A DNA stretch of 64,000 nt from Planctomyces sp. SH-PL14 (GTDB lineage: Bacteria; Planctomycetota; Planctomycetia; Planctomycetales; Planctomycetaceae). The translations under genes were made by a program, and so were the position numbers. Below are positions 33,872 through 54,372 of this stretch, in pieces. Positions within the stretch are counted from its first letter, which is position 1, and each line of letters opens with the position of its first letter. The notes beneath the pieces were generated by a model that saw only the letters and a program-made list of their open reading frames with translations, was not told where the DNA came from and ran no database searches. The DNA lies in contig NZ_CP011270.1 of assembly GCF_001610835.1 (NCBI RefSeq), positions 3,800,001 through 3,864,000 of the forward strand. Reading direction: 5' to 3'.

Positions 33872-34201
33872 TCAGGCCGGGGGTGCGCCACCGCGATCGG
33901 AGCCCGGCTTCTCTCTTGGATCCTCTGGCTCGACGACGCCGCACCAGACCCGCGGACCTCCGGGGACGTATCGGGGCCCATCCGCCCTCACCCGGTATCC
34001 CAGCTTCGTGACCCGTGTGCCGTTCCGCACCTCTTCGAGCAGTCCGCTTTGAATCAGCCCCTGCATGGCCATGTCGAGTCGGACGGGGTGGTAGCGCGTG
34101 GCATCGAAGCCGGCAATCAGGTCAACCAACAGCCGCCACTCATCCTCTGAGATCTTGAGGCTTTGAACCGGCCCTGCCGAACTCCCCGTCGCTCCCACCA
34201 C
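33872..34201 (-). CDS. Small winged-helix-like protein, family member B2
   Basis: 109 residues. SLKISEDEWRLLVDLIAGF starts the domain in the same way as TLLDDEWGALTQLA and TLFDDEWSGLTRLA in the 58-60 kb members. Then LDMAMQGLIQSGLLEEVRNGTRVTKLGYRV gives the recognition-helix-like and wing-like parts. The tail (PRVWCGVVEPEDP) matches the GVRVWFEPDV ending of the member at 58.6 kb. Same strand as its two neighbours in this cluster. Confidence 0.6.
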   Translation of the reverse strand: MVGATGSSAGPVQSLKISEDEWRLLVDLIAGFDATRYHPVRLDMAMQGLIQSGLLEEVRNGTRVTKLGYRVRADGPRYVPGGPRVWCGVVEPEDPREKPGSDRGGAPPA

Positions 34202-34325: not shown

Positions 34326-34616
34326 CTATGGCTCCAAACCCCGATGGCTCGCAAATGGTGGTCCCAGCGCATCGAGAACTGAACGCGGGATCGACACCGT
34401 GCCGGAAGCTCCTGAGTCGATGAGCTTCTGCGATACAGCTCGCCCCAACGGTGTCAGTCGCAGCTCGTCGCCGACGGCTTCGGCCAGGCCAGCCTCACAG
34501 AAGAATTCGCAGGCGATTTCGTGCCCCAGCGTCGGGCCGGTCCGGCTCAGAACCCCGTCCTTTGCCGCGAACTTCAAGAGCGCGACCTCGTCCCCCAACA
34601 ACACCAGCCCCTTCAT
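34326..34616 (-). CDS. Small winged-helix-like protein, family member B3
   Basis: 96 residues. KGLVLLGDEVALLKFAAKDGVLSR...EFFCEAGLAEAVGDELRLTPLGRAVSQKL: helices followed by GL...GDELRLTPLG, the wing-and-turn block of this family. It resembles MVEELILLRDEVQFLRWLHGRGG...GEVAELTSLGERI of the member at 59.1 kb. Function unknown; the C-terminal 20 residues vary between members. Confidence 0.6.
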   Translation of the reverse strand: MKGLVLLGDEVALLKFAAKDGVLSRTGPTLGHEIACEFFCEAGLAEAVGDELRLTPLGRAVSQKLIDSGASGTVSIPRSVLDALGPPFASHRGLEP

Positions 34617-36446: not shown

Positions 36447-37290
36447 CTTTCATCTCCTTTCGTGGTTTTAGCCGCGCCCGTTCAGTCAGGGCGAATTGCC
36501 GGAGAGGGAAAATCGCCTCCGACATGGAGCGACACCGCAAGCAAGCCGCGCGCCGACGGCGGTTCGTAGCTTCAAGAGGAAACTCGTCAAGAACTTGTGG
36601 CAAAGAAGGACCACGAAGCCCTAAACATCGCCTGTCATCTCGGCAGACAAATGGCAGCGTGGCTGTCTTGGAGGACTAGTCTGGATCGCCCGGGCTTCGC
36701 GATCATCTCCTGGCCGAAGTCGTGAAAGTTTCTTTTGGCTTGACCATCGCAGGCCATCTCCACCGAGGGGCCTGACTGCGATCCTCTCGCGGCCGGACCG
36801 CATCCCTGCGAGGAATCGAAGCAACCGGCGCCCGGGCCAGGGATGGAACAGCGAGTTTATAGGGACAGCCCGCTCTATTCGGAGGGTCACGAGAATGCGC
36901 CACAGGGTCGACGGGGCTTTTCGCGGGACCACAACAGGGCTCGCGTGACGCGCGGCGGGAGAGGCCTCGTCGACGTTCAAATCACCGAGGTCGAAGCCTC
37001 CGGGCTCGGCGAGCCGAGAGTTCACTCGGACGATTGCTGTGGGTTGACTCGAAGCGACGCCTCAAGCCAGCTCCCACTGCTGTTTGCCGACGTTATCGGC
37101 AACCGCTCGAAATCGGTCGGGTACTCGGCTATGTCGGCAGAGACAATCCCAACACAACGCTCTGCAGCCTCTGTCTCGGAGTCCTAAGACGGGGGAGTGA
37201 AACCGGACAAGTTTGGCGATGCTGGAAACACACCTCGCGCGCCAGTAGCGATTCAGGTTGGATGCAGTTGGCCGAACTGCCGGTAGAAAC
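36447..37290. other. Long gene-free stretch between hsp20 and the OLD operon
   Basis: About 840 bases without a gene that I can support. On the minus strand, 37040-37180 reads DSETEAAERCVGIVSADIAEYPTDFERLPI and continues to a stop, protein-like but closed by a stop at its 5' side and without a start. I recognise no RNA or repeat; it may hold the terminator of the defence-like operon and the hsp20 promoter. Confidence 0.4.
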
Positions 37291-39096
37291 CTACGCGTTC
37301 GCAAATTGTTCGTAGCGTGCCTTCAACTCCTCTTCGGTCTTCCACTCGCAACACTCCTCTGGCGCCGCGTCGTGATGATCGAGCAGAGCGTACAAAAGGC
37401 GTTTGACGCGATCGCACAGCTCTTGGCTCTCCTTCATCCTCAGCCAAGCACTGACAGGCTTCTCTTCGCTGAACTCCTCACCGAAAAATGCGCCCTCGAA
37501 ATGAGGGATAAGTGCGAGCAGTCGTACCCGCACCGCTTCGACGGCCTCTTGAACTGATGCAAGAATGTTCCTGTTGTTCGTCCAAGCCGGATTCGCGATG
37601 TCTTCGTATTCCTGAGACTTCCTCTTTCTTCGTCTCGCGGTGGGTGAATCGCTGTCATGCAGGACGGCATACCGTGCATTGAACTGATTGAGAATCTTCG
37701 CGATGAGGCAGATCGTCGCTTTGCCGCGGGCACGGATGATGTGCACGTCCCTAAGCTTCTCATCGTCGATACATGTGTGGATCAGGTACTTGAAGGCCGT
37801 ATATTCGGTGTCCCCCTCCACGACGATCGTTCGACCGCCGAAGAAAAACTCGCAGAGATGGGGGTCGCAAAGGTTGAGCATCTTCAGCTCTTCCTTTTCG
37901 TCGACGCTGAGATTTGCCTTCTCTGGACGGAAAACCGTCGTCCCGGTGATGACCCCGGCCACCGAGTCCCGTTCAACTCGTACGACAGTCGTGTTGTCCC
38001 GTGACAGATCGATGAAGGCTGGTGAATGCGTTGTGACCATCACCTGCCACTTCCCAGCCTGAGGCAGGTTGTACAGGACGTTGCACGCTTCTCGGACAGC
38101 ATTCGGATGAAGGCACAGCTCAGGTTCGTCCATCAGCAAGAGATTCGGACGGGTATCTTCGGTTGCCTTCTTTTCAGCCGCGTACTTCAAGGCGGCCCAC
38201 ATCAGAGTTCGTCGGGCTCCACTGCCTTGCTTGTCCGCGGAACTGAGGTGGCCGTCCTGTGGCCCCATTCGTAACACGGCCCCCGGCTTGAAGAATTGAA
38301 GACAGTCCGTGAGATCCTCTTCAGTTTTGGCTTCGAACTGAATCTGATAGCCGCGAAAGACGTTCTGAATCAAACTGGTGAGGTGCTCTTGAGCGTGGTC
38401 AATTTCTTCCTGAGCCTGTTCGAGAACGGACTTCTGGACAGCAGCGATGCTGTCGATGAGCTTACCGTAGTCTGTCCTTGTTTCTGTCCCGTCCTCGGCC
38501 ATGTGACTCTGCGGCATCTTCTCAACTGCGGCATGCAATGCCGCGATCAGGAGCTTGATTACTGCTCCCGTTTGGGCTTCTGGACTCGCGAATGCGTCAA
38601 TGCGATGGGGACGCGGTCTGCGTGAATTCGCGACGTTGGCTGCTCCCCAAGGCACTTGGTCCGACCACTCGTTAGTCTGCGTGTCGAATCCCTGACGCTT
38701 CGCCACTCCAGGATTGCTCCACGTCCATCTTTCTCGAACGATCTGCTCTCCGTCGAGAGTGGCGATCCATTTGCTCGCGGGCGGATTGTCGATGATTCGT
38801 GTGTGGAGCTCGATCTCGGGCAGAGAGCCCTCGACTACCTTGTTTCCCGGAAAGTCTTCGATCGTCAGCTTCGGAGTCGACGAATCGAAAAGGACCTCAT
38901 AGGCGCGAAGGATCGTGCTCTTGCCCGTGTTGTTGCGACCGACCAAGACGACAACGTCATCCAGATCGATCTCGACTGGTGTGCTTCCAATGCAGCCGAG
39001 ATTGCGGATGATCAGTTTTCGGAGCTTCGTCCCGATATCCGATGCTATCACTCCGTCAGCTTCGGATGCTGCTTTCGCTGCCGCCTTCTTGGCCAT
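37291..39096 (-). CDS. OLD-family ATPase/TOPRIM nuclease
   Basis: 601 residues. The N-terminal ABC-type ATPase has Walker A GRNNTGKST (53-61), a helical insertion, a signature-like SSADKQGSGARRTLMWAALKY and Walker B NLLLMDEPELCLHP (D323/E324), with TTHSPAFIDLS as the H-loop. The C-terminal TOPRIM domain has IVVEGDTEY (E427) and LHDSDSP (D481, D483), the acidic metal site of OLD nucleases. The family is known in phage defence: class 2 (GajA) with a UvrD-like helicase, class 3 with reverse transcriptases as in retron Eco8. Here it is last in an operon with a reverse transcriptase and a helicase-like gene. ATG 39096 (MAKKAAAK) is preferred to longer frames. It is probably the effector. Confidence 0.9.
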   Translation of the reverse strand: MAKKAAAKAASEADGVIASDIGTKLRKLIIRNLGCIGSTPVEIDLDDVVVLVGRNNTGKSTILRAYEVLFDSSTPKLTIEDFPGNKVVEGSLPEIELHTRIIDNPPASKWIATLDGEQIVRERWTWSNPGVAKRQGFDTQTNEWSDQVPWGAANVANSRRPRPHRIDAFASPEAQTGAVIKLLIAALHAAVEKMPQSHMAEDGTETRTDYGKLIDSIAAVQKSVLEQAQEEIDHAQEHLTSLIQNVFRGYQIQFEAKTEEDLTDCLQFFKPGAVLRMGPQDGHLSSADKQGSGARRTLMWAALKYAAEKKATEDTRPNLLLMDEPELCLHPNAVREACNVLYNLPQAGKWQVMVTTHSPAFIDLSRDNTTVVRVERDSVAGVITGTTVFRPEKANLSVDEKEELKMLNLCDPHLCEFFFGGRTIVVEGDTEYTAFKYLIHTCIDDEKLRDVHIIRARGKATICLIAKILNQFNARYAVLHDSDSPTARRRKRKSQEYEDIANPAWTNNRNILASVQEAVEAVRVRLLALIPHFEGAFFGEEFSEEKPVSAWLRMKESQELCDRVKRLLYALLDHHDAAPEECCEWKTEEELKARYEQFANA

Positions 39097-39193
39097 TGCT
39101 TGCCTCAATGGGATGTGATCGGCTGACGCAGCGTGGCCCGCCAGTGATGCCCTAAGCCTGATTCTGTCTGGCCAATCTGGATGTGCAAGCGAG

Positions 39194-39802
39194 TCACACC
39201 GAGGGAGACGCATTGCGCGAAAGCGCCTTTTGAAGGCGAAGCATCATCACGGACATCCGCGAAAGTGATTCCTCGATGGCACCACCCAGTGCGGGCGAAG
39301 CGGGATCCGCGACGTCGTTGATCCGATCATCAACGGTCTGCAGCCATGCGGTGGATTTCCGATCGACCCGAACCCACCATTCCGAATCGGAACTCGCTCT
39401 CTTCGCCTTCCTGCCGGCGCCGCGGGGATTGGTTCGTTGGTATTTGCCCCCGATGTGTTCCGACACCGCGCTGACCGTCATCCCGTCCGCGATTGCGGCC
39501 TTGGCGATTTTCATCCGCTCGCTCCGGTCCCCTACGCTGAGCAGTTTTCGGACGATTCCCCAGCCGAGCGGCGTTCCCCGTTTTGGCGTGGTGATCATCC
39601 TGAAATCGCGCTCAGTGAAGAGCTGTCGAAATCGCTTCGCCTTCTGGACCTCATCCAGGCTGACGCCATTCTCAGCTGCGAAAGCCGGGATCGCTCCGTG
39701 AGGCGTCCTTCCCTCGGGGTACGCCGCTAGAAACTTTCGGCCGAGTTCGTACCAGCGGCGCAGAATCTCCGCGGATCCGTCGTGTTGCGAGGAGTCGGGC
39801 AT
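39194..39802 (-). CDS. DUF1016-N-like small protein
   Basis: 202 residues, soluble. SAEILRRWYELGRKFLAAY, then VQKAKRFRQLFTERDFRMI...GTPLGWGIVRKLLSVGDRSERMKIAKAAIADGMTVSAVSEHIGGKYQ has the layout of the DUF1016 N-terminal domain (LxWxHxxxLL-x-V-D-x-x-x-R, then W/M-T/S-V-x-x-L), normally fused to a PD-(D/E)xK nuclease in YhcG proteins. Here the nuclease is absent and a basic linker (RGAGRKAKRASS) leads to another helical part. A DNA-binding or bridging role beside the OLD nuclease and reverse transcriptase is inferred. ATG 39802. It lies 58 bases after the RT and 97 bases before the OLD gene. Confidence 0.6.
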   Translation of the reverse strand: MPDSSQHDGSAEILRRWYELGRKFLAAYPEGRTPHGAIPAFAAENGVSLDEVQKAKRFRQLFTERDFRMITTPKRGTPLGWGIVRKLLSVGDRSERMKIAKAAIADGMTVSAVSEHIGGKYQRTNPRGAGRKAKRASSDSEWWVRVDRKSTAWLQTVDDRINDVADPASPALGGAIEESLSRMSVMMLRLQKALSRNASPSV

Positions 39803-39860
39803 GAGAGTCGGTGTTGAAGAGTAGGGAATCCAGTCGCTCGAACAGCAACTACCGCAACGA

Positions 39861-41174
39861 TTAGACGTCTTTGCCGATCCACGGTGGAATCGACAAGGGA
39901 TTGTCGACGAGCTCATCAACCAAGAGTTGGTCAGCGTCGTCGAAAAACGGTGGCCGCGGAGAGGCACACCCCACACCACCACCCCTTACCCTCACCCATC
40001 TCTCCTTCGCCTCCTCGATCCACTGGTGGATTTCGTGACGCGTCGGCGCTTCGAGATGGAACTTGGTGCAGAGATTTACGATGCGCGAGGCTTCATAGTG
40101 TGCTGCCGCAGGTCCAAAAGCAGGTCCGTAAGCCATGATCCACCCTCTCGTGGCGAGACGGGCAGTGTGATGTGGCGTGGGAGATCGCAGGCCGTCTTCG
40201 AGCTTGCCTCTCAGGTACTCCCAGGACTGGTCCGGAATACTGATCCTGAGCTGGCTGCCATCCCAGCGGACTGCGTAGCCCAGCACGGATGCCGTCCGCT
40301 TGGTGAGATCGGTGATCCGGTCTGGCACACGCTTCAGCTGAAGACCAGCCGCCGCAAGGTGGCGCTCTGAGATGTCGAGCGATCGTTCTGCTTCGGATGG
40401 GCTGCCCGCTGGGCCGATCAGATTGTCGGCGTAACGGACTTGGCCCAGGTTGGGTTCCTGGCGAACCAGGATGTCCAGATCGTAGTGCAGTTCAACGTTC
40501 AAGCCGGTTGGCGCAAAGGCGTCTCCTTGTGGTAGCCCAATCTCTCTCGTTCCGCGCTCGAAACGGAACATCCGCTCGATGAGGGAGAGAAGTCGGGGGT
40601 CAGATACGTGATTTGAAAGATGTCGAAAAAGCCGGTCCAGCCGTACCGACGGAAACGCGTGGCGAACATCGTCTTGATAAAGAATCGTCCGTCCGGTGCG
40701 TTGAATTTCGCGCTCGATATGAAGGAGCAACTGCCAGACGCCGCGCCCGCTTCGAAAGCCATAGATCGAATCCAGGAACATCGTGTCGAAGATCGGTGTG
40801 AGGGCACGATGAACAGCTGTCGACACGCAACGATCCATCACTGTTGCGATCGATATTTCACGTCGCTCCCCGCTCTGATCGGCGGACAGGCTCCGTTTCG
40901 GGATCAGGACGGTCCGAAAGGGCTTCGCGCGGTACGTTCCGTCCTTGATCTTCCTGGTTAGATCGCGAAAAGCCGCAGCCGCCTCCCTCGGGCCGTAGTC
41001 GTCGTAGGTCAGTCCATCGATTCCAGCGGCGCGTCCGCCGTTAGCCCGAAGATCTTGAAACACCGCGAGCAGGTTCTCGTGGTCGACGATGTCGTCGAAG
41101 GAAGTCGTGGCGACGGCAACTGCCTGAGAGGCAGAGGAACGGACTCGGCGTCTCGGGATCTCGTACTGGCTCAT
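39861..41174 (-). CDS. Group-II-intron-like reverse transcriptase with YADN box
   Basis: 437 residues. An RT domain runs from about 35 to 340: FRTVLIPKRS, RREISIATVMDRCVSTAVHRALTPIF (motif 2-like), LDSIYGFRSGRG, motif A YQDDVRHAFPSV (catalytic D169), GLPQGDAFAPTGLNV, and VRYADNLIG where group II RTs have YADD (D250 kept, N251 instead of D). Motif 6-7 like LDISERHLAAAGLQLKRVP and VLGYAV follow. The C-terminal 110 residues are a basic helical domain; no HNH endonuclease, retron VTG or NAxxH block is evident. ATG 41174 lies in the 4-base overlap ATGA with the upstream helicase-like gene, so translation is coupled. The N for D change may weaken or alter polymerase activity. Its template is unknown. 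Confidence 0.9.
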   Translation of the reverse strand: MSQYEIPRRRVRSSASQAVAVATTSFDDIVDHENLLAVFQDLRANGGRAAGIDGLTYDDYGPREAAAAFRDLTRKIKDGTYRAKPFRTVLIPKRSLSADQSGERREISIATVMDRCVSTAVHRALTPIFDTMFLDSIYGFRSGRGVWQLLLHIEREIQRTGRTILYQDDVRHAFPSVRLDRLFRHLSNHVSDPRLLSLIERMFRFERGTREIGLPQGDAFAPTGLNVELHYDLDILVRQEPNLGQVRYADNLIGPAGSPSEAERSLDISERHLAAAGLQLKRVPDRITDLTKRTASVLGYAVRWDGSQLRISIPDQSWEYLRGKLEDGLRSPTPHHTARLATRGWIMAYGPAFGPAAAHYEASRIVNLCTKFHLEAPTRHEIHQWIEEAKERWVRVRGGGVGCASPRPPFFDDADQLLVDELVDNPLSIPPWIGKDV

Positions 41175-42586
41175 CGCGAGATCTCCCTGCGGGAGAGGTA
41201 CTCCGCGACCTTCTGCTCGAGCGAGTTCCCTGCCAGCCAACCCCATCGCTGATAGGCCGCTTCACGCATCTTTGCGCCACGCCGCAACTCCGGATGGTGG
41301 ATATCGAGGAAGTCGACCCATATTGCGGGTCGGTGCCTTATCCAATACCCGGGTATTGTAATTGAACGGACGTTGTCATCGACTCCACACGTTCCGGCGG
41401 CGTAGATCACAGTCTCCGCCTGATCAAGCGACGCTTCTCCCAAGTCTCCGAGCGGCACGACGCGAAGCGTTGAATCCATCATCGTTCGCCTCACCTTACG
41501 CCGAATGACGTGGTGATCGGCTTCAGAGATCCAGTGCGGAATTGATGCATCGGAGCGGACAATCTCAGCACGTGGGAGCTTCTTGGCGAGACGCACCGCG
41601 TGCCGGAGATCGGCCGCGACAATCACCGTTGATGTCGAGGCAGAGCTCACCGCAACCTGCACGATCGCACGGTTTCGCGACTGGTGATAGACGATCCCGT
41701 GGTCGCGCAGTTTCTGACCCGTGAGATCCCCTGAAAGCTTCCGTCCGCTGCGGACGTTGACGATTCTCGCGTTGATTTCCCGAGCGGAATCCCCTCCCGG
41801 GAGGATCGACACCGACTCCAGCCCGAATACACAGTCAATGCTGTCCGCCTCAACGGCAGACAGGCTTACTGTTCCAAGACGGAAGCCCAGCACCCGCACG
41901 AAGGCGAAGCTGTCCACTGCCTCGGCGGCCCACGAGTGGGCAATGTTGCTCGCATCCAGAAAGATGATCAGGCCATTTGGGATGCCACTCAGACGGTAGA
42001 GCCACTGCAGATCGGCGATGGTCCCGAAGTAGGTGTGTCCATCCCTCTCGACGACTCCATTGCGAATCGGGATCAGCCTTGCATGATGAGACTCTGCCAG
42101 CAGATTCCTGATACTGCGAATTGTGTACTCGAGATCTGATCGACTGCCGGAGACGACCGCGATCTGAATCGACGGGAACGCCGCAATGATGTGTGCGATC
42201 ACCCTGTCCCGCAGTTTCTCGGTGGGAACGTCGACAACCCCTTGTTTGGCCTCCGCGATCAGCTCCAGTGGGGCCGTAGAGAGTCGGGGGCCCAGATATC
42301 CAGCCTCATACGGATTGCAAATCGACCATTGAGCGGTTTTGAACGAGAACTCACATCCAGTGACAGCCTCAAGCACCGGCTGCAAACCACGCCGGACATA
42401 CAAATCGATTTCGCGCCCCTCGAGCGTGATGTGGGCTGGCTCGATTCCCTCGACGGCCGCCGACTGCGACGAGAGAGGCGAGAAAACAGACCTCAGTTGA
42501 TCCGCCTGGTCGGCAGAAAACGTAGCGCTCAGGCGCCGATTTTCTCGGATGACGCTCCGCGGCGTGCAGCGAGGTAGAGGAGTCAT
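41171..42586 (-). CDS. Degenerate SF2-helicase-like protein, first gene of the RT operon
   Basis: 471 residues, soluble. The fold pattern resembles two RecA-like domains of an SF2 helicase, but the motifs are broken. EAKQGVVDVPTEKLRDRVIAHIIAAFPSIQIAVVSGSRSDLEYTI sits where PTGxGKT and the following strand should be, without the GKT. GLIIFLDASNIAHSWA sits at the DExx position as LDAS. STVIVAADLRHAVRLAKKLPRAEIVRSD and AETVIYAAGTCGVDDNVRSITIPGYW look like domain-2 motifs IV and V. No Walker lysine or DEAD glutamate remains, so helicase activity is unlikely; a binding role is inferred. It overlaps the RT start by 4 bases. AGGTGA touches ATG 42586. This is a fold guess and needs structure comparison. 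Confidence 0.55.
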   Translation of the reverse strand: MTPLPRCTPRSVIRENRRLSATFSADQADQLRSVFSPLSSQSAAVEGIEPAHITLEGREIDLYVRRGLQPVLEAVTGCEFSFKTAQWSICNPYEAGYLGPRLSTAPLELIAEAKQGVVDVPTEKLRDRVIAHIIAAFPSIQIAVVSGSRSDLEYTIRSIRNLLAESHHARLIPIRNGVVERDGHTYFGTIADLQWLYRLSGIPNGLIIFLDASNIAHSWAAEAVDSFAFVRVLGFRLGTVSLSAVEADSIDCVFGLESVSILPGGDSAREINARIVNVRSGRKLSGDLTGQKLRDHGIVYHQSRNRAIVQVAVSSASTSTVIVAADLRHAVRLAKKLPRAEIVRSDASIPHWISEADHHVIRRKVRRTMMDSTLRVVPLGDLGEASLDQAETVIYAAGTCGVDDNVRSITIPGYWIRHRPAIWVDFLDIHHPELRRGAKMREAAYQRWGWLAGNSLEQKVAEYLSRREISR

Positions 42587-42699
42587 TCACCTGTCCACAA
42601 TTACCGTGTATTGGGAAATCTATCCTAGCCGAGGATTAGGAGCAACTAACAGTCGAGCTTCCACATATCGGGATCCCAAATCGCATGTCGAACGGTAGC

Positions 42700-42912
42700 A
42701 TCTGCAGCGAGTCCTCGATGAGGACGTGACACCGGCTCTTCGGGACCTTGGCCGCATTCGGAGAGATGCTCGAGGCTGACTCCCCGTCGATTGAAGACGG
42801 AGTATCGCGAGTTCACCTGATTGTTGGTTACCGGCGTACTCGAACCCTCGTACACGCCGGTAACAAACGAATGAGTGAACTGCCGCAACACCTGCCTCGT
42901 AGGCGGGTTGCG
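42700..42912. other. Array of hairpins upstream of the RT operon (possible structured RNA or regulatory region)
   Basis: Several inverted repeats follow each other. GTCCTC-GAT-GAGGAC lies at 42711-42725. ACTC(CC)CGTC pairs with GACGGAGT at 42779-42803. GTTACCGGCGT (42827-42837) pairs perfectly with ACGCCGGTAAC (42854-42864), enclosed by AGTTCAC (42810-42816) and GTGAACT (42875-42881). CGCAAC...GTTGCG lies at 42884-42912. The last one ends exactly at the IS21 insertion, and the sequence beyond the element (CGACGGC) could extend its stem. Another hairpin (CCTTGAA/TTCAAGG, 45502-45526) lies on the far side. The region 42587-42912 is otherwise without a gene that I can support. Confidence 0.6.
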
Positions 42913-43065
42913 TGTTGAGGGCGGTCCAAAATGGCAGCGGCGGGCGGGGATCGGGGCGGTCGAATCTGACAGCGCACAGTTGTGCATCTTGAGAACACGG
43001 CAGGATGGAGGCGTCAGCCTCCGTCCTGTCCGTCGTCCCCGAGGTGCCTAGGAGTGCGATCCGAT

Positions 43066-44556
43066 ATGGAGTTCTGGAAAGAAGTCCGGCAGCAGGTCCT
43101 GACCGGCCAACTCACCCAGCGCGCCGCCTGCCGCAAATACAGCCTCGGCTGGCGGACGCTCAAGAAGATCCTGGCCCACGCGGAGCCGCCGGGGTATCGG
43201 AAGAACCAGCCTCGCCCCAAGCCCAAGCTGGAGTCGTTTCTCCCCGTCATTCACCAGATTCTGGAAGCGGACCGCACGGCGCCCAGGAAGCAGCGGCACA
43301 CGGCCAAGCGGATCTTCGAGCGTTTGCGGGACGAGCATGGCTATCAGGGTAAGCTGACCGTCGTGAAAGACGCGGTCCGGGACTGGAAGCAATCCCACCA
43401 GGAGGTCTTCCTGCCGCTCTCCCATCCACCGGGTGAGGCTCAGGTCGACTTCGGGGAGGCGACGATCCGGCTCGACGGCCAGGAACGGAAGGTGGCCCTG
43501 TTCGTGATGACGCTCCCCTACTCGGGAGCGATCTTCCTGCAGGCCTTTCCCCGGGAATGCACCGAGACCTTCCTGGAAGGACATCGCCGGGCGTTCGAGT
43601 TCTTCGGAGGGGTTCCGTATCGGATCAGCTACGACAACTCCGCCATTGCGGTGATCGAGGTTCTCAAGGGTCGGGAGCGGAAGCTCACCCGGGAGTTCCT
43701 GCGTCTGCAGAGCCACTACCTGTTCCGGGAGCACTTCTGCCTCGTCCGCCGCCCCAACGAGAAAGGGCATGTCGAACGCCTGATCGGCTTCGCCCGGAGG
43801 AACTTCCTTGTGCCGGTTCCGCAGGTCGGTTCCCTGGAGGAACTCAACGCCCAGTTGCGGGAGCGGTGTCGGACGGATCTCGCGGAGCGGGTCCGTGGGA
43901 GAGGGAGTTCCAAGCAGGACCGGCTTCCAGAGGATCAGGCGGCCTTCCTGCCGCTCCCGAAGCAGACGTTCGAGGCTCGACGTGTGGGAGAGCGAACGGT
44001 CGACTCCCAGTCCCTGGTGCGGTTCGACGACAACGAGTATTCGGTTCCGGTCCGGTACGCCCACCGCAAGCTTCTGGTCGTCGCCACGGTCCAGGAGATC
44101 CGGCTCGTCCATGAAGACCGACTGGTGGCCCGGCACCTGCGGTGCTGGGACCGGGAACGGACGTTTTTTGAGCCCGTTCACTATCTGGCTCTGCTGGAGC
44201 GGAAGCCTGGCGGCCTCGACTACGCCCGCCCTCTGGAGCAATGGGGACTGCCGGAGTGCTTCGCGGTGCTCCGGCGACGCCTGGAGGCGGGAGATCCCCG
44301 CTCGGGAACGCGGTCGTACATCCGGGTCCTGCGGCTGCTGGAGAAGTTCTCTCTGGCCCAGCTGTCGGCCGCGGTTGAGTACGCGCTGGACATCGATGTA
44401 ATCGATCCGGACAGCCTCCGGACGATCGTTGAACATCGGGCGGAGCGCCCTGCAGAGCTGTTCCGGCTCGACGGCCGGCCGCATCTGGCTCATGTGCGGG
44501 TCGAGACGACCTGCGTCGCCTCCTACCAGGCCCTTCTGGAAGGAGGGACGCCATGA
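43066..44556 (+). CDS. istA: IS21 transposase IstA
   Basis: 496 residues. The N-terminal HTH (WKEVRQQVLTGQLTQRAACRKYSLGWRTLKKIL) binds the element ends. The DDE integrase core has GEAQVDFGEATI (first D), SYDNSAIAVIEV (second D) and NEKGHVERLIGF (E). The C-terminal domain ends with the usual beta-barrel part (SLVRFDDNEYSVPVRYAHRKLLVVATVQEIRL). ATG 43066 (MEFWKEV) is a better start than the upstream codons, which lie in the end repeats. Its stop overlaps the istB start by 4 bases. Confidence 0.95.
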   Translation: MEFWKEVRQQVLTGQLTQRAACRKYSLGWRTLKKILAHAEPPGYRKNQPRPKPKLESFLPVIHQILEADRTAPRKQRHTAKRIFERLRDEHGYQGKLTVVKDAVRDWKQSHQEVFLPLSHPPGEAQVDFGEATIRLDGQERKVALFVMTLPYSGAIFLQAFPRECTETFLEGHRRAFEFFGGVPYRISYDNSAIAVIEVLKGRERKLTREFLRLQSHYLFREHFCLVRRPNEKGHVERLIGFARRNFLVPVPQVGSLEELNAQLRERCRTDLAERVRGRGSSKQDRLPEDQAAFLPLPKQTFEARRVGERTVDSQSLVRFDDNEYSVPVRYAHRKLLVVATVQEIRLVHEDRLVARHLRCWDRERTFFEPVHYLALLERKPGGLDYARPLEQWGLPECFAVLRRRLEAGDPRSGTRSYIRVLRLLEKFSLAQLSAAVEYALDIDVIDPDSLRTIVEHRAERPAELFRLDGRPHLAHVRVETTCVASYQALLEGGTP

Positions 44557-45314
44557 CCGACACGAAGAGCACGGTGCTGCTGAAGCACCACCTCAAACAG
44601 CTCAAGCTGCCGACGATGCAGCAGGAGTGTGAGAAGGTCGCCCAGCGGTGCGCCTCTGACAATGCGGATCACCTGGCGTACCTGCTGCAGCTCTCGGAGC
44701 TGGAGCTGATCGAGCGGGAACGGAAGGCGGCGGACCGGCGGCTCAAAGCCGCCCGGTTCCCGGCGGCGAAGCTGCTGGACGAGTTCGACTTCGCAGCCCG
44801 TCCCAGCGTGAACAAGCCGCTCGTGTTGCTGCTGGCGAAAGGAGAGTACCTCGATCGGCGGGAGAACATCCTGCTGGTCGGTCCTTCCGGGACCGGGAAG
44901 TCGCACCTGGCGACGGCGCTGGGAATGGCGGCCTGCGCCCAGGGCCGCAAGGTGCGGTTCTTCCGGGTGACGGAGCTGATCACACAGCTCCTGGAAGCCA
45001 AGGAAGAACGCCAGCTTCTGCGGATGCGGCAACACCTGGCGAAGCTGGACCTCTTGATCCTGGACGAGCTGGGCTACGTCCCGGCCAGCAAGGCCGGCGC
45101 CGAGCTGCTGTTCGACGTGATCGCAACGGCGTACGAGCGGAACAGCCTGATCGTGACGACGAACCTGCCGTTCGAGAACTGGACGGAGGTGCTGGGGAGC
45201 GAGCGCCTTACGGGCGCCGCGCTCGATCGTCTGACGCACCGCTGCCACATCCTGGAGACGCAGGGCGAAAGCTACCGCCTGCAGGACGCCAAACGCCGGC
45301 GGAAGTCCGGCTGA
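44553..45314 (+). CDS. istB: IS21 helper ATPase IstB
   Basis: 253 residues. A DnaC-like AAA+ ATPase with Walker A GPSGTGKSHLA, Walker B LLILDELGYVPA, sensor TTNLPFENW and the C-terminal RLTHRCHILETQGESYRLQ. IstB activates the IstA transposase and selects the target. It starts in an ATGA overlap with istA, so the two are translated together. Length and motifs are complete. Confidence 0.95.
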   Translation: MTDTKSTVLLKHHLKQLKLPTMQQECEKVAQRCASDNADHLAYLLQLSELELIERERKAADRRLKAARFPAAKLLDEFDFAARPSVNKPLVLLLAKGEYLDRRENILLVGPSGTGKSHLATALGMAACAQGRKVRFFRVTELITQLLEAKEERQLLRMRQHLAKLDLLILDELGYVPASKAGAELLFDVIATAYERNSLIVTTNLPFENWTEVLGSERLTGAALDRLTHRCHILETQGESYRLQDAKRRRKSG

Positions 45315-45682
45315 GCGGCTTTCCCGGCTCGACTCCGGACGTTCCGGAGGTCGATACAAGCTTCAGGCCCCGATCCGTCTGGTGTTCTTCACCCCCTCAG
45401 CGCTGTCATTTTCGGCCGCCCGCCGCTGCCATTTTGAACCGCCCTCAACAGGTTGCGACGGCGTCACAGGGCAACTCCGCACTCCCGAGCAGAATTGGGC
45501 CCCTTGAAGAGCCGCCGCGTTCAAGGCTTGTCATCCCCCCGATGATTCACTCTTTGGTGCGGGCTCGCGGGCGTCACAACGATCTCTCCCAGCTAAATCC
45601 CCCTCAAAAATGCGTCACTATCTGTAGAGGACCCGCCTAGCACTTCGCGACCGGTAATCCTCAGTCTTCAGAGGAGCGATGC

Positions 45683-45889
45683 ATGAATGAGGTGCAACGA
45701 ACAGAGGGCCAGCTGACTCCCGCCCAGATTCGGATTGCCGAGGTCATCGCCTTGGCGATTGCGACGCGGTGGCGAACAATTCAGGGCGAGGGCGAACCTG
45801 ATCGATCTCCGCCTGACGGGCAACCGGCTTTACCAGTTCCCCGAAGTGAAGGGACCGAGTCCGGCGATTCCCGAAGCGTTCAGCAGTGA
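45683..45889 (+). CDS. Small hypothetical protein upstream of recombinase cassette
   Basis: 68 residues. MNEVQRTEGQLTPAQIRIAEVIALAIATRWRTIQGEG is helical and ends in a proline-rich tail. AGAGGAG lies 6 bases before ATG 45683, a strong start. After residue 38 the neighbouring frame (NLIDLRLTGNRLYQFPEV...) looks more protein-like, so a frameshift cannot be excluded. It is the first plus-strand gene on the far side of the IS21 element and reads away from the RT operon. Confidence 0.5.
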   Translation: MNEVQRTEGQLTPAQIRIAEVIALAIATRWRTIQGEGEPDRSPPDGQPALPVPRSEGTESGDSRSVQQ

Positions 45890-45965
45890 TGGCGAACGAC
45901 GTCGCCAGAGTTTGAAGTCATGTGCCCCGGCGGAGCCGGGCGAAAAAAGGAGAGGGAGTGTCTCG

Positions 45966-46991
45966 ATGATCGAATTTGGGCTTGAGAAGCTGGCCGAACG
46001 CCCAAGTTTGGCCAAGACGTGGTACTACGTGCTGCCCTCCCGACTTCTGAGCCTGCTCGAGGCCGAAGGGGTGACGCAACGTCTCGATGCGTCGCTCTGG
46101 GCGGAAGAGATCGAGCTGGGCAAGCTGGCCGAGAGACTCGGAGCAGTTGGCTTTCGCAATGGAAGCCCGGTTTTCGACTCGGTTCTTGTGCCCCCGCCGA
46201 AGCTCCAAGATCAGGGACTCGCTCGTCGGACGATGGAGGAGTGGGGGCTCAACGATGCCGAAAGAGCCACGTTATTGAACAAGGCCGAAAGCCGGCTCGA
46301 CTTCGAACGTGAGACCGCGAGGGGCTACTGCGGTTGGCTCTTTACCAACCCAGCATTTCGCTCCGAGTACCAGGCTCTACAGACGGCGATGCCGCAACTT
46401 CTCCGGCCCGAAGGAGAGATCCTGCTCCCTGCCGGCCCGACGAACTCGGAAACCGAACTGCGAGTAATTCGGCGGGAAACGATGGATCTAGGTCTCCTGG
46501 AGGACTTTTGCCTGCGCTGGAGACTGAATCACGTCGTCGGCCCGAGGACCGTCATGCCGCTGGGGCGTCAGGAGGTCTCGCCGCTTCCCTCACTGGATGC
46601 CGCCCGTGCACAAGAGGTCGGCCGGATCGCGTTTACGCCGGACATCGCCCGGCTCCCGCCGCGTGATGAGCTTCGAGAACGTGAGGAGGCAGCTATCCGC
46701 TTCACCGCTCGGTCGGCCGAACATCTCCGCGAGTGGATCAACCTCGTCGAGTCAATCACTCTGGGTAAGAAGTCGATCGCACGGTGGGCTCGGATCTACA
46801 GTCTGCAGCACTACTGGGGCGTTCTCCACGAACGTCACGGCGCGTCGCTCAATCGACTTGGCTCGAAGACGCTTGACGCATTCGCCCAGTGGCTGGAGAT
46901 CGACCGGTCGACGCTCGAAGGGGATCTCAGCCAGATTCGGAGTCGGCTGGGGGGAGCTTTTGAGTCCCCGCGCGGGCGATCGCTGGATTGA
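45966..46991 (+). CDS. Hypothetical protein (341 aa) between hairpin array and recombinase
   Basis: Soluble, mainly helical, no signal peptide. Recurrent helices include IEFGLEKLAERPSLAKTWYYVLPSRLLSLLEAEGV and EEAAIRFTARSAEHLREWINLVESITLGKKSIARWARIYSLQHYWGVLHERH, and the end (DAFAQWLEIDRSTLEGDLSQIRSRLG) resembles a small HTH. I recognise no family. GGGAG lies 7 bases before ATG 45966. It lies between the small gene and the serine recombinase on the same strand, so it may be a cargo or accessory of the integrating element. Confidence 0.65.
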   Translation: MIEFGLEKLAERPSLAKTWYYVLPSRLLSLLEAEGVTQRLDASLWAEEIELGKLAERLGAVGFRNGSPVFDSVLVPPPKLQDQGLARRTMEEWGLNDAERATLLNKAESRLDFERETARGYCGWLFTNPAFRSEYQALQTAMPQLLRPEGEILLPAGPTNSETELRVIRRETMDLGLLEDFCLRWRLNHVVGPRTVMPLGRQEVSPLPSLDAARAQEVGRIAFTPDIARLPPRDELREREEAAIRFTARSAEHLREWINLVESITLGKKSIARWARIYSLQHYWGVLHERHGASLNRLGSKTLDAFAQWLEIDRSTLEGDLSQIRSRLGGAFESPRGRSLD

Positions 46992-47392
46992 AACGCCGGG
47001 GGATGAGGGGCCCATCCCGCTCTTCCGCTTGATTTCGATCAGCTTGGCCATCGCCGCGCGGCTTCTCCAGCATTCTGCATTCTGAAAGAGCCCGGGCAAC
47101 CCCCGGCGATGGGGCAGCGGCGGGCTTTTCCACCAGTCGAGGACCCTGCCCGACGGGCCTTATGACATGCGGCAGGTCTCGCCGGCTTTGGCGGGCGCTC
47201 CTCGCGAGTGCGCGTCATGAGCTGACGTCCCACCGATGTCCTGCCAGAACGGCCCGTGACAAGGGCGGATCTCGGTCCGACATCCCCTGCTGTTTTCTGC
47301 GCGTCCTCACGGAAGTCTTTGGTGGGTCGGCGACACTCGCCGCCCCACCTTCTCCCCCGGGGACGATGTCCCACCAATCAGAAGCAGAAAAC
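46992..47392. other. Gene-free stretch before the recombinase
   Basis: About 400 bases. Open frames on either strand look like noise. It contains GCATTCTGCATTCTGAAA, a short direct repeat, near 47070. The region could carry the attachment site of the recombinase, but no core can be identified from one copy. Confidence 0.35.
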
Positions 47393-49600
47393 ATGAATCA
47401 TTCGCTGAAAGACAACACCCTGAGGAAGCTCGATGAGCTCCTTAGATCGAATGCGGCGCGCCGCAGGAAGCGCAGGCAGGAGCAGGAGAAAGCCTCGTAC
47501 GCCCGGTACTCCAGCTGGCGTCTGCAAGATGAGACGAGCATCGAGGACCAGAACCGCGAGACGTGCGGTCTCGCCGGAGTGGCGATCAAGCCCGAGTTGC
47601 AGTTCGCCGACAAGGGCATCTCCGGAGCGGAGCACAACCGCGAGGGGCTGTACCAGATGCTCGAAGCAGCCGCCGATGGAGAGTTCAGCGAGTTGTACGT
47701 CTTCTCTCTGAGCCGGCTCGCTCGCGAGTACGTCTTCACGATGTCGCTGCTCAAGTGGTTGGTTTACGAGTGCGGTGTTCGCGTTCGTTCCAAGGTTGAG
47801 GGGATCGACACGAATGTCCTCGGTTGGGAACTGCACTCGGCGTTCCAGGCCATGTTTGCGGAGCAGTATCGAAAGGAGCTGCAGGAGAACAGCCTGCGCG
47901 GATTGCTGGGCAATTTGGCGTCCTTCTACAGCCTTGGAGACTATTGCTTCGGATTCGATTCGCATCCGGATCCGAACGGTGCGTCTCGGAAGGTCCGCGG
48001 CGTTGACGTGCCCAAACGTCGGTATGCCATTCACCCCGAAAATGCCAACTGGGTGAAGCGGATCTTCCACTGGTTTGTCCGCGAGAATCGTGACATCCAG
48101 TGGATCGTCCGTGAGTTGAATGAGCTTCAGGTTCCCCGCGACCACCGGGCCACCAACACGCATTGGGATCACTCGTCGGTCCGTCGGCTCCTTGAGTCGA
48201 CGAAGTACATTGGACTCTGGACCTGGGGCCGCCGGAAGAACTGTCGGAGTCCCCTCACCGGAATCAAGTTTCGGCAGCTGCGCACGGACGAAGAGATCCT
48301 GAAGTGGAACCGCCAGTTCCCTGAGCTGCGGATCATCGACGACGAAACCTTCCACCTGGCTCATTTGAAGCTGAAGGCCAATGCCGACCGGGTCGCCGCA
48401 TACCGCCGCCCTGATGGCAAGCTGGGTGGCGCTGCCGGCCCGAACGGAGTGCCGCGGCATCTGCTGCAGGGACTCTTGCACTGTTCGGCCTGCGGGTCGC
48501 CCATGCACGTCACTGGTCCCAAGGCGAGGTACCTCCGTTGCCGCGGATACCGCGATGGGCTCTGTGACCAGCGGAGTCAGCTCCCGCGCGATCTGGCGGA
48601 GCAAGAGATTCTTCAGCTCGTGAGCAATCGGATTCTGCGTGACGACGAGTGGACCAACCTCATTGTCACTAGGACCATCGAGCATTGGCGCACCGAGTGG
48701 AAAGGCCTGCCGAACGACATCGACACCCTGCGCAGGCGTCTGCGTGAGTGCGAGAGCGGCATTGAGAACCTGCTGAATAAGATCGAGCGGAGTAAGGTTG
48801 CCATTCCGTCGGTCGACAAGCGGCTTGAGGAACGTCTGCAGGAGAAGCAGCAGCTCGAAGACGATCTGGCCAACGCATCGGATCGCCTGACGAAGGCCCC
48901 GGATGAGCGGGGGCGAGAGGACATCGTAAGGGAGCTTGGCAAGCTTGATTCCGTCATCCGGTCTCAAACTCCGGCGGCTGCTGTCGCCTTGGCGGATTTG
49001 CTCCGTGGACCGATCCTCGTCTCCACGGTCCCGGCGCCGCGTCGTATGCGGAAGGCGTTCCAGTTGGCGATTCCTCTGACCGTAGACCGCGTGCTCTACG
49101 CGACGGGCCTTCTCGGCTCCGAACCGCCCACAGATCAGGAAGCTTCGCCTCTGACCCTTGATGTCGAGAGACCCTCGCGGGGACGGACTCAAGCTCAGGA
49201 GGCTTGGAGGCTCCTCCATGAGGGAAAGGCCGCTAAGGACATCGCCCTCGAACTGGGGGTGTCGCGGAGTCGCGTGACCGTCCTCCTCCAGGAGCTGGCC
49301 GCGACAAATCGGCTAGGCTTGAGCGTGAAGCAGTTGCACGCGCTGGCGAGGTCGAGGCGCGCCGCACCTCCAAAGCTGGCGGACCGTCTCGAACCGCGCG
49401 TCATGGAGCTCTTTCGCGAGGGCCACCTGATCGAAGAGATTGCCACGGAACTCGGATGCAGCGACGCCACTGTCCATAAGGCCATCGCCAACTGGCATCG
49501 GACCCGCGGTCTGGCAGTTCCGGACGGGAGGACCCGGCGGAAGCAGCTCACCAACAAGGTCCGGCGGCTTCCCAGCGACGGGGCAACAGAGAATGCGTAG
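47393..49600 (+). CDS. Large serine recombinase
   Basis: 735 residues. The resolvase domain begins ASYARYSSWRLQDETSIEDQ with nucleophile S40, then FADKGISGAEHNREGLYQML and LYVFSLSRLAREY with the catalytic Arg residues. The recombinase domain and zinc beta-ribbon (HCSACGSPM ... YLRCRGYRDGLCDQ) follow. A long coiled coil (about 455-540) and two C-terminal HTH units (DIALELGVSRSRVTVLLQEL and EEIATELGCSDATVHKAIANW) complete it. Such enzymes integrate and excise phages and islands at att sites. ATG 47393 or 47366 are both possible. It sits at the junction between the RT module and the DUF1257/AAA cassette, and its terminator follows. Integrity of all motifs suggests it is active. Confidence 0.93.
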   Translation: MNHSLKDNTLRKLDELLRSNAARRRKRRQEQEKASYARYSSWRLQDETSIEDQNRETCGLAGVAIKPELQFADKGISGAEHNREGLYQMLEAAADGEFSELYVFSLSRLAREYVFTMSLLKWLVYECGVRVRSKVEGIDTNVLGWELHSAFQAMFAEQYRKELQENSLRGLLGNLASFYSLGDYCFGFDSHPDPNGASRKVRGVDVPKRRYAIHPENANWVKRIFHWFVRENRDIQWIVRELNELQVPRDHRATNTHWDHSSVRRLLESTKYIGLWTWGRRKNCRSPLTGIKFRQLRTDEEILKWNRQFPELRIIDDETFHLAHLKLKANADRVAAYRRPDGKLGGAAGPNGVPRHLLQGLLHCSACGSPMHVTGPKARYLRCRGYRDGLCDQRSQLPRDLAEQEILQLVSNRILRDDEWTNLIVTRTIEHWRTEWKGLPNDIDTLRRRLRECESGIENLLNKIERSKVAIPSVDKRLEERLQEKQQLEDDLANASDRLTKAPDERGREDIVRELGKLDSVIRSQTPAAAVALADLLRGPILVSTVPAPRRMRKAFQLAIPLTVDRVLYATGLLGSEPPTDQEASPLTLDVERPSRGRTQAQEAWRLLHEGKAAKDIALELGVSRSRVTVLLQELAATNRLGLSVKQLHALARSRRAAPPKLADRLEPRVMELFREGHLIEEIATELGCSDATVHKAIANWHRTRGLAVPDGRTRRKQLTNKVRRLPSDGATENA

Positions 49601-49682
49601 CTCGCCGACGCCTCGCCTTCGACAACGCCGATCGAGGTAGATCGCGATCCACACAGTCCTTTCCGTCGAACCGAACTCCGCA

Positions 49683-49719
49683 GTGCCGTCAGAACTCAGT
49701 TCCGACGGCACTTCTTTTT
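49683..49719 (+). terminator. Rho-independent terminator after the recombinase
   Basis: GTGCCGTC (49683-49690) pairs with GACGGCAC (49704-49711), with an inner GAAC-TCA-GTTC stem, followed by TTCTTTTT. It lies 80 bases after the recombinase stop and 122 bases before the DUF1257 gene. Confidence 0.88.
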
Positions 49720-49840
49720 GCGCTCGTGCCAGTTGGCTAAATCCCAAGCGATCTTGCGTCACTAACAGTGTTCACCTCCGAAACCCGTTTCCTGTTTGCG
49801 AATCTCACGTCCTTCCCAACATCGAAAGGCCCCACACGGA

Positions 49841-50203
49841 ATGTCCCACATCGTCCACATCCAGACGGAGGTCCGCGATCCGATCGCGATCTTCAACGCC
49901 TGCACAAGGCTCTTGCTGCCGCAGCCGGTCTCCGGAGAGCACCAGCTCTTCGCCAGCCGCGTCCGCGGCCTCGGAGTTCAGCTCCCACGTTGGCAGTACC
50001 CGGTCGTTTGCCAGACCGAGACGGGCCAGCTCCAGTACGACAACTACGGCGGCCGCTGGGGGGATCCTGCGGAGCTCGACCGTTTCCTGCAGCGCTACGC
50101 CGTCGAGAAGACCAAGCTCGAAGCCCGTCGCCAGGGACACAGCGTCACCGAGCAGTCCATGGAGAATGGCTCGATCCGTCTCACCGTTCAGGTCGGAGGC
50201 TGA
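49841..50203 (+). CDS. DUF1257 (Ycf35-like) protein
   Basis: 120 residues. MSHIVHIQTEVRDPIAIFNACTRL is the DUF1257 opening, and VVCQTETGQLQYDNYGGRWGDPAELDRFLQRYAVEKTKLEARRQGHSVTE...IRLTV is its second half. The plastid/cyanobacterial homologue is Ycf35, of unknown function. It starts a conserved trio with DUF2997 (8 bases downstream) and the Ycf46-like AAA ATPase. This trio is known from cyanobacteria and also from phages and plasmids. ATG 49841. Preceded by a terminator, so it probably has its own promoter. Confidence 0.85.
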   Translation: MSHIVHIQTEVRDPIAIFNACTRLLLPQPVSGEHQLFASRVRGLGVQLPRWQYPVVCQTETGQLQYDNYGGRWGDPAELDRFLQRYAVEKTKLEARRQGHSVTEQSMENGSIRLTVQVGG

Positions 50204-50211
50204 AGATCCTC

Positions 50212-50403
50212 ATGAAGACCATCGAGATCACTGTCACCCCGAATGGCCAGACCCAAGTCGAGACGAAGGGCTTCGAAGGGAGCTCCTGCCGTCAGGCGAG
50301 TGAGTTCCTGGAGCGAGCCCTCGGCGGCTCGATCGATGAGCGTCTGACTTCGGAGTTCTATACGACGCAGGCCGATTCGCATCGGACTGAGGCGAAGGCG
50401 TAA
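50212..50403 (+). CDS. DUF2997-family small protein
   Basis: 63 residues: MKTIEITVTPNGQTQVETKGFEGSSCRQASEFLERALG. The first strand pair (KTIEITVTPNGQTQVETKGF) and C-terminal helix are those of DUF2997, which accompanies DUF1257 and Ycf46-type AAA proteins. It starts 8 bases after the DUF1257 stop, so they are co-transcribed. The cysteine in GSSCRQAS is the family's conserved one. Function unknown. Confidence 0.85.
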   Translation: MKTIEITVTPNGQTQVETKGFEGSSCRQASEFLERALGGSIDERLTSEFYTTQADSHRTEAKA

Positions 50404-50498
50404 CGGTTCGCACCGCGGGCCTCTCGCCAAGCTTCTCTTCTTCCAAGCGTCCCAGCCCCGCTTCGGACGCTCCTTCCCATCACAACAGGAGACCTCTC

Positions 50499-51962
50499 AT
50501 GACGCTCACCGAGCGCATGCGGGAGTCGGTCCGCGCCTGCTTCACCGGGCTGTGGATCGAATCCCATGAACATCACGATGCCTTGCTGGAGATCCAGCAC
50601 CTCTGCCGCCAGGAAGGCTGGCAGCTCGCGACCTGGGACATTGACCAGGGGCTTGTCGCTCCCGGAGCCACTGCGGGTTCGGCCGCGGACCCTCTCTCGG
50701 CCATCCGGTCTCTCGGTTCGCTCGCCCAACCCGAGGGAACGACGCTCCTGGTCCTCCAGAACTTCCACCGGTTCCTGCAGTCGGCAGAGATTGTCCAGAC
50801 GCTTTCCCGGCAGATCCTGGCCGGGAAGCAGAACCGGACGTTCCTCGTCGTCCTGGCGCCGGTGGTCAACATCCCGGTGGAGCTGGAGAAGCTCTTCCTC
50901 GTCCTGGAGCATGAGCTGCCGGGAAGGGGTCAGCTGCAGGAGATCGCCCACGGGATCGGGACCGAAGAGGGAGACCTTCCGAGTGGCGCCGAGTTGGACA
51001 CCCTCCTCGATGCCGCCTCGGGCCTGACCCGTTACGAAGCGGAGGGGGCTTTCAGCCTCTCCCTCGTCCGGCACGGCCGGATCACTCCGGATGCCGTCTG
51101 GGAGCTGAAGACCCAGACGCTCCGGAAGAGCGGCCTGCTGTCGCTGTATCGGGGCGACGAGTCCTTCGACAGCCTGGGGGGCCTGGCGGCACTCAAGGCC
51201 TTCTGCCGGCGGTCGTTGCTCCATCCTCGCGGACAAACGAAGCCCAAGGGGGTTCTCCTGCTGGGAGTCCCCGGGACGGGCAAGAGTGCCTTCGCCAAGG
51301 CCCTTGGTCGGGAAACCGGACGTCCCACGCTCTGTCTTGATATCGGAGCCCTGATGGGCTCCCTCGTCGGGCAGACCGAGCAGAACATCCGGCAGGCGCT
51401 CCGCATTGCCGATGCGATGGCGCCCTGTGTCCTGTTTATTGACGAGGTCGAGAAGGCCCTCAGCGGTGTGTCCGGGACCGGGGACTCGGGAGTCTCCTCC
51501 CGGCTCTTCGGCTCTCTCCTGACCTGGATGAACGACCACACGTCGGACGTCTATCTCGTCGCCACCTGCAACGACATCTCCCGGCTGCCGCCGGAGTTCT
51601 CCCGGGCGGAGCGGTTTGATGGGATCTTCTTCCTGAACCTGCCCGGCCAGGGCGAGCGGGAAGCGATCTGGCGGCTCTACGTCGAGCAGTTCGGCCTCGA
51701 TGCCGACCAGAAGCGGCCGGCGGACGAGCAATGGACGGGAGCGGAGATCCGGGCCTGCTGCCGATTGGCGGCGCTGCTCGATCTCCCGCTCGTTCAGGCC
51801 GCCCAGAACGTCGTCCCGGTCGCCGTAACCGCCGCCGAGTCGGTCGATCGGCTCCGGAACTGGGCCAGCGGGCGGTGTCTCTCGGCGGATCAGCCGGGAA
51901 TCTACACCGCTGCCGTTGGTATGAGACCACCGCGGCGGAAGATCACGCCCTCCCAGAACTGA
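50499..51962 (+). CDS. Ycf46-like AAA ATPase
   Basis: 487 residues. The N-terminal half (about 1-210) is a degenerate ATPase-like domain (ADPLSAIRSLGSLAQPEGTTLLVLQNFHRFL, FLVVLAPVVNIPVEL), as in Ycf46. The C-terminal AAA domain has Walker A GVPGTGKSA (256-264), Walker B VLFIDEVEKA (311-320), sensor 1 VATCNDI and RAERFDGIFFLNLPG with the Arg finger region. Ycf46 proteins are plastid/cyanobacterial and are linked to DUF1257 (Ycf35) and DUF2997, both directly upstream here. It probably remodels a partner protein or nucleic acid; the target is unknown. The ATG 50499 start follows a strong ribosome site (CAGGAGACCTCTC). Confidence 0.92.
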   Translation: MTLTERMRESVRACFTGLWIESHEHHDALLEIQHLCRQEGWQLATWDIDQGLVAPGATAGSAADPLSAIRSLGSLAQPEGTTLLVLQNFHRFLQSAEIVQTLSRQILAGKQNRTFLVVLAPVVNIPVELEKLFLVLEHELPGRGQLQEIAHGIGTEEGDLPSGAELDTLLDAASGLTRYEAEGAFSLSLVRHGRITPDAVWELKTQTLRKSGLLSLYRGDESFDSLGGLAALKAFCRRSLLHPRGQTKPKGVLLLGVPGTGKSAFAKALGRETGRPTLCLDIGALMGSLVGQTEQNIRQALRIADAMAPCVLFIDEVEKALSGVSGTGDSGVSSRLFGSLLTWMNDHTSDVYLVATCNDISRLPPEFSRAERFDGIFFLNLPGQGEREAIWRLYVEQFGLDADQKRPADEQWTGAEIRACCRLAALLDLPLVQAAQNVVPVAVTAAESVDRLRNWASGRCLSADQPGIYTAAVGMRPPRRKITPSQN

Positions 51963-51983
51963 CCCGCCACCCAGGAGTTCGCC

Positions 51984-52289: not shown

Positions 52290-52298
52290 CAGGGCGCT

Positions 52299-52520: not shown

Positions 52521-52674
52521 CCCGGCATTCGATGTTGACTATGCGCATCGCTCCACGGACTATGAGTATCATTCCGTGGAGGGCTGGTTGGGGGCGGGGC
52601 GATCTGGCGGCAGGGGCCCATTCGATGCGCCTGTGTTTCTTTCTTCACCTTCCTCCTCGAATCGAGGCCTTTGT

Positions 52675-53553: not shown

Positions 53554-53615
53554 CCAGGGGACTGTGACTTGTCGAACTCCGTGGCCCACATCCATCACCA
53601 TTCAATGGAGGCGTT

Positions 53616-54340: not shown

Positions 54341-54372
54341 GTTTGTGCTACCAGTTCCTCAAAGGAGCCTTC

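What the first reader, a model, noticed from the sequence alone, without database searches (positions are those of the whole stretch)
42700..42912. Hairpin array upstream of the RT operon, with a nested 72-nt hairpin
Four to five inverted repeats lie in a row, one of them an 11-bp perfect stem (42827-42864) enclosed in a 7-bp stem (42810-42881). Retrons and some defence RTs have a structured non-coding RNA just upstream of the RT gene, so this could be a template RNA, a regulatory leader or a recombination site. The array continues beyond the IS21 element.
Basis: partly seen in the sequence, partly recalled or inferred. Interest (0 to 1): 0.6.

Follow-up and report, generated by a model that had tools for sequence, protein, structure and literature searches.

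The report
Serine-recombinase attachment site beside RT operon
The hairpin is most likely the DNA crossover site at the end of a mobile element that moves with its own serine recombinase, not an RNA that serves the neighbouring reverse transcriptase; its interest is that a probable phage-defence operon sits exactly at such a junction.

Summary
The nested hairpin is real: an 11-bp perfect stem (42827-42837/42854-42864) inside a longer dyad, 25 of 35 positions symmetric about 42845/42846, beyond shuffles. The wider 'array' is not clearly above chance.

It is not a conserved leader or template RNA of the RT operon. Nine related operons lack any matching upstream hairpin, and no Rfam family reaches its threshold.

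The same genome (G000, about 8.4 Mb) holds a second copy of the DNA to the right of the hairpin: 75 bp, then, after an IS21 present only in the window, about 10.7 kb including an intact large serine recombinase (94% identical). Homology between the copies begins at the hairpin centre; the left half differs. Left halves of three further sites match each other while their right halves differ, and one right half recurs at a fourth locus; every switch falls at the same central dinucleotide (CC at four of five sites). This is the signature of site-specific recombination at a serine-recombinase att site, as in phage phiJoe (GG core).

The RT/OLD operon lies between two such half-sites (37053 and 42845), as in a tandem cassette array. 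No attR was found; recombinase activity and cassette mobility are inferred.

The parts
42810..42881 (.). S1: att-like dyad: left half-site La 42810-42844, core CC 42845-42846, right half-site R1 42847-42881
   Evidence: 25/35 symmetric positions about 42845/42846; R1 is 34/35 identical to the copy at C1:5139563-5139597 while La is only 22/35 identical to that copy's left half
37019..37053 (+). S4: second left half-site (Lb type) in the same orientation, on the far side of the RT operon
   Evidence: 28-29/35 identity to the left halves at C1:5139526 and C1:5123565; half-site profile score 45 against a best unrelated hit of 10 in 144 kb
37057..37239 (+). remnant of a gene 3' end (DUF1552-like by the author's knowledge; domain not scanned), abutting S4
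   Evidence: 70% identical, as the only significant match in this genome, to the 3' end of the gene lying next to the second recombinase element
41171..42586 (-). g471: uncharacterised protein upstream of the RT, overlapping it; homologues or a gene of similar size lie upstream of most related RTs
39861..41246 (-). reverse transcriptase, group II intron-like, with YADN in place of YADD
   Evidence: RVT_1 2e-17; TIGR04416 1e-44, below its cut-off; YxDN in 10 of 11 relatives
39194..39982 (-). g262: uncharacterised protein
   Evidence: no Pfam or NCBIfam match
37291..39213 (-). OLD-like AAA ATPase/TOPRIM nuclease
   Evidence: AAA_15, OLD-like_TOPRIM; PADLOC Old 2e-86
42913..45450 (+). IS21-family insertion (istA 42982-44556, istB 44553-45314) with 7-bp duplication GGTTGCG; it split the recombinase element 67 bp right of the att core
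45735..46991 (+). g418: uncharacterised protein between att site and recombinase, present in both element copies
   Evidence: no homologue beside 16 other recombinase relatives
47162..49600 (+). large serine recombinase (Resolvase, Recombinase, zinc ribbon, HTH), the probable enzyme of the att site
   Evidence: Pfam; 94% identical copy at C1:5141330-5143768

Best explanation
The hairpin is read as DNA, not RNA. It is an attachment site of the large serine recombinase encoded at 47162-49600. Two recombinase dimers would bind two such dyad sites, each subunit on a half-site, cut both strands at the central CC/GG dinucleotide (42845-42846), swap half-sites and rejoin. Repeated exchanges of this kind leave a chromosome in which left halves and right halves are shuffled among loci, which is what is seen. 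Shown by sequence: the dyad, the switches of homology at its centre, the intact-looking recombinase 1.8 kb away once the IS is discounted, and a second half-site beyond the RT operon. Inferred: that this recombinase is the enzyme, that it is active, and that the RT/OLD operon was brought in or kept as a passenger cassette between two such sites. The perfect inner stem follows from the two recombinase subunits reading the same sequence on either side of the crossover.
For: Window 42838-42912 plus 45451-56183 recurs at C1:5139554 onward (91% over 75 bp, then 89% and 83% over 10.4 kb), and similarity stops just left of the hairpin centre. Half-site table: right halves S1/S2 34/35; left halves S2/S3 29/35, S2/S4 28/35, S3/S4 29/35; right halves S3/C1:279545 34/35; all other right-half pairs 7-11/35. 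The S3 right side is 96% identical for 876 bp to C1:279545, starting exactly at CC. So three independent switches fall at the same dinucleotide. Dyad 25/35 at S1 and 20-21/35 for every Lb type with R1, but only 10-16/35 for La, Lb or Lc paired with R2 and 8-15/35 with R3. The half-site profile finds only these sites in 244 kb around the two loci. Serine recombinase domains. Published parallels: phiJoe attP, at most 50 bp, GG at the centre of an imperfect inverted repeat (PMC5311408); [quoted passage not shown]
Against: No reciprocal right end (attR, La/Lb joined to a host half) was identified for either element copy; the La motif is unique in the genome. S4 has GC where the other sites have CC. 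No relative closer than about 41% was found for the recombinase, so the site could not be tested in another species; diverged relatives show no recognisable version of the half-sites. Every switch of half-sites comes from one genome.
Confidence: 0.8

Rival explanations
1. The hairpin is part of a structured non-coding RNA or leader of the RT operon (retron-like template RNA, group II intron remnant, or regulatory leader) transcribed on the minus strand.
For: It lies 224 bp upstream of the operon's first gene, and the 326-nt leader folds at z = -2.9 on the minus strand.
Against: Nine related operons have no matching hairpin or sequence upstream; no Rfam family reaches its threshold; half of the hairpin belongs to another element and occurs without the RT operon at C1:5139563; no sigma-70-type promoter-like site in 42500-43100.
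Confidence: 0.06
2. The dyad is an operator, a binding site of a regulator of the recombinase element, rather than a crossover site.
For: Half-sites of this type occur at several loci near related genes, and dyads are common operators.
Against: An operator does not explain why homology between copies changes exactly at its centre at several loci, in some cases on the left and in others on the right.
Confidence: 0.07
3. The site is an attachment site, but of another enzyme (a different serine recombinase elsewhere in the genome, or a recombinase that acts on folded single strands as integron integrases do).
For: The genome has at least one further large serine recombinase (C1:2761118, 37% identical); the strand folds well as ssDNA.
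Against: The recombinase at 47162 lies in the same element, next to the R1 half, in both copies.
Confidence: 0.07

Closest known systems
attP/attL sites of large serine integrases (phiJoe, phiC31, Bxb1)
   Same: Short imperfect inverted repeat with a crossover dinucleotide at its centre (CC/GG here, GG in phiJoe, PMC5311408), near a large serine recombinase gene; homology switches at the centre.
   Different: No phage genes recognised, no attR found; the recombinase is longer than typical (812 aa as called, about 700 aa from the start of the resolvase domain) and only about 24-27% identical to those of phage records.
Staphylococcal/enterococcal cassette chromosome (SCC/ECC) att sites
   Same: Serine recombinase, dyad in some att forms, direct repeats at cassette junctions, variable passenger content (PMC6222049).
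   Different: No ccr identity (CcrB model 43 bits against cut-off 900), no link to rlmH shown, different half-site sequence; tandem order here is inferred.
Retron msr-msd or group II intron RNA upstream of an RT
   Same: Position upstream of an RT gene and a long stem.
   Different: No Rfam match, no conservation upstream of related RTs, RT nearest to group II intron-like enzymes.

Membership tests
large serine recombinase attachment site | imperfect dyad with a central dinucleotide | tested here: met
   25/35 matches about 42845/42846, CC core
large serine recombinase attachment site | crossover at the central dinucleotide, seen as a switch of flanking homology between copies | tested here: met
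   S1/S2, S2/S3 and S3/C1:279545 all switch at the core
large serine recombinase attachment site | cognate large serine recombinase gene nearby in the same element | tested here: met
   47162-49600, and the same arrangement in the second copy; that it is the cognate enzyme is inferred
large serine recombinase attachment site | element bounded by attL and attR, with an empty attB in relatives | tested here: inconclusive
   only one end identified; no further La or R1 in the genome beyond the known sites; no close relative to supply an empty site
large serine recombinase attachment site | recombination by the enzyme | not testable with these tools
   needs an in vitro or plasmid assay
retron or RT-associated ncRNA | structured RNA conserved upstream of related RT genes | tested here: not met
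   no hairpin or sequence shared with the window in 9 relatives
retron or RT-associated ncRNA | match to a curated RNA family | tested here: not met
   only sub-threshold chance hits
retron or RT-associated ncRNA | transcription and cDNA | not testable with these tools
   needs RNA and cDNA sequencing
SCC/ECC cassette | CcrA/B/C recombinase | tested here: not met
   CcrB model 43 bits, cut-off 900

The most novel reading that the evidence does not exclude
This genome carries an accretion system in which a large serine recombinase moves cassettes in trans, in tandem, at shared half-sites, and a recombinase-less RT (YADN) plus OLD-nuclease defence operon is one of the cassettes (37054-42844), by analogy with SCC composite islands of staphylococci.
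Probability: 0.3. Interest if true: 0.6.

Novelty: new member of a known kind. Interest (0 to 1): 0.35.

Why it matters
It corrects the likely reading of a hairpin next to a reverse transcriptase: structure upstream of an RT is not by itself evidence of a template RNA. It also gives a testable att site and crossover for a recombinase with no close relative in the genomes searched, and a route by which a defence operon could be gained or lost as a unit.

Tried and rejected
The hairpin array as a whole: not clearly above chance. Rfam: a sub-threshold mir-5880 match on both strands is a chance match to a perfect hairpin. tRNA target: no tRNA in the window. A 3-mismatch La hit at C1:4048713 was rejected as chance in apparently coding DNA (valS-like by recall). 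Search for attR by half-site profile in 244 kb: nothing above controls. Dyads beside 16 diverged recombinases: several strong inverted repeats, none recognisably the same. Comparing two pairs of similar relatives (L094/L095, L066/L067) for a switch at a dyad: in the first pair similarity starts about 430 bp upstream of the gene without a clear dyad at the edge; uninformative. The idea that the S3 right side is an insertion sequence: it holds only small ORFs, no transposase recognised by eye. The idea that the second locus is a clean empty site for the RT cassette: attractive (Lb joined to R1), but the gene remnant at 37057-37239 lies on the wrong side for a simple insertion.

Full report
Where it is. 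The window is bases 3800001-3864000 of a single 8.44-Mb contig. The nearest named relatives of the recombinase are MAGs titled Planctomycetaceae, and many neighbouring genes look planctomycete to the author; the placement is inference.

The observation. The nested hairpin is present at the stated coordinates. Within 213 nt an 11-bp perfect stem with a loop of 3-60 is reached by 0.4% of dinucleotide shuffles, and the longer dyad exceeds all 300 shuffles. In the whole window only four such stems of 11 bp or more exist. The other inverted repeats of the array are not clearly above expectation (5 stems against 2.25). The IS21 copy lies at 42913-45450 with a 7-bp target duplication.

The key evidence. 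A search of the genome with the region found a second copy at C1:5139543-5139628. Aligned, the two loci are alike from window 42838 rightwards: 75 bp, then (with the IS21 absent from the second locus) 45451-53525 at 89% and 53813-56183 at 83%. This shared DNA carries an uncharacterised 418-aa gene, a large serine recombinase (47162-49600; copy 94% identical) and downstream genes. To the left of the hairpin centre the two loci differ. A pattern search with the left half of the other copy found three matching left half-sites, all on the same strand: C1:3837031 (window 37031-37053), C1:5123577 and C1:5139538. The right half of the C1:5123577 site recurs at C1:279547, where 876 bp are 96% identical, beginning exactly at the core CC.

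Half-site table. With five junctions aligned on the core (S1 = window 42845, S2 = C1:5139561, S3 = C1:5123600, S4 = window 37054, and C1:279545), right halves S1 and S2 agree at 34 of 35 positions while their left halves agree at 22; left halves S2, S3 and S4 agree at 28-29 while their right halves agree at 7-10; right halves S3 and C1:279545 agree at 34 while their left halves agree at 6. A chain of halves swapped at one dinucleotide is hard to explain except by site-specific recombination there. The dinucleotide is the exact centre of the hairpin dyad. Every left half of the La or Lb type is partly symmetric with R1 (20-25 of 35), whereas pairs with R2 or R3 are at or little above background (8-16). 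At a fixed centre, 25 of 35 has a chance of about 2e-8 under a simple binomial.

Mechanism. Serine recombinases bind as dimers on dyad sites, cut both strands with a 2-bp stagger at the central dinucleotide, rotate and rejoin (established knowledge). The hairpin is the DNA footprint of that symmetry. In phage phiJoe the attP is 50 bp or less, with GG at the centre of an imperfect inverted repeat (PMC5311408); in ECC/SCC islands dyad symmetry in attR and the circular form is described as characteristic of serine-recombinase sites (PMC6222049). Here the recombinase lies about 1.8 kb from the core once the IS is discounted.

The RT operon. The operon (g471, RT, g262, OLD-like nuclease) lies on the minus strand between S4 and S1. 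A related pair elsewhere in the same genome and eight further relatives have no corresponding hairpin upstream. The RT is group II intron-like with YADN where the catalytic YxDD is expected, a feature of 10 of 11 relatives examined. Whether the segment 37054-42844 moves as a cassette is open: both of its ends fall at att-type cores, but S4 has GC rather than CC, its right half is not symmetric with its left, and a gene remnant that at the other locus lies left of the recombinase element sits at the segment's left end.

What is missing. No attR, no empty site in a relative, no assay. Relatives of the recombinase in 248 related genomes and 170 genomes of the same order (overlapping sets) are at most about 41% identical, and the half-sites are not recognisable beside them.

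Verdict. An attachment site of a large serine recombinase, probability 0.8. Ordinary as a kind; of moderate interest because of where it lies.

Noticed in passing
window 39861-41246 (-) and loci L073-L083: A clade of group II intron-like RTs carries Y(A/V)DN instead of YxDD in 10 of 11 relatives, usually with a gene of about 470-600 aa directly upstream, apparently fused to the RT in L080. G2L5 RTs were described from planctomycetes (PMC4244168); a link was not tested.
   Followed up: partly
G000:C1:250000-282138 against 3819208-3822226 and 3867848-3881513: A third region shares segments at about 75-98% identity, in shuffled order, with the window's left part and right flank; looks like mosaic exchange. 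Segment edges inspected were not at the att core.
   Followed up: partly
window 33872-34201, 34326-34616, 58455-58862, 60173-60679 and C1:5123780-5125300: Many short ORFs of about 90-110 aa with similar-looking sequences, in small series around these regions. No family search was made.
   Followed up: no
window 47162-56183 and L097: A further recombinase relative at C1:2761118 (37%) has a downstream stretch resembling the AAA gene at 50499-51962, so recombinase and AAA gene may travel together.
   Followed up: no
window 11383-11437: A short stretch 84% identical to the IS21 end at 45398-45453, perhaps a remnant of another copy.
   Followed up: no
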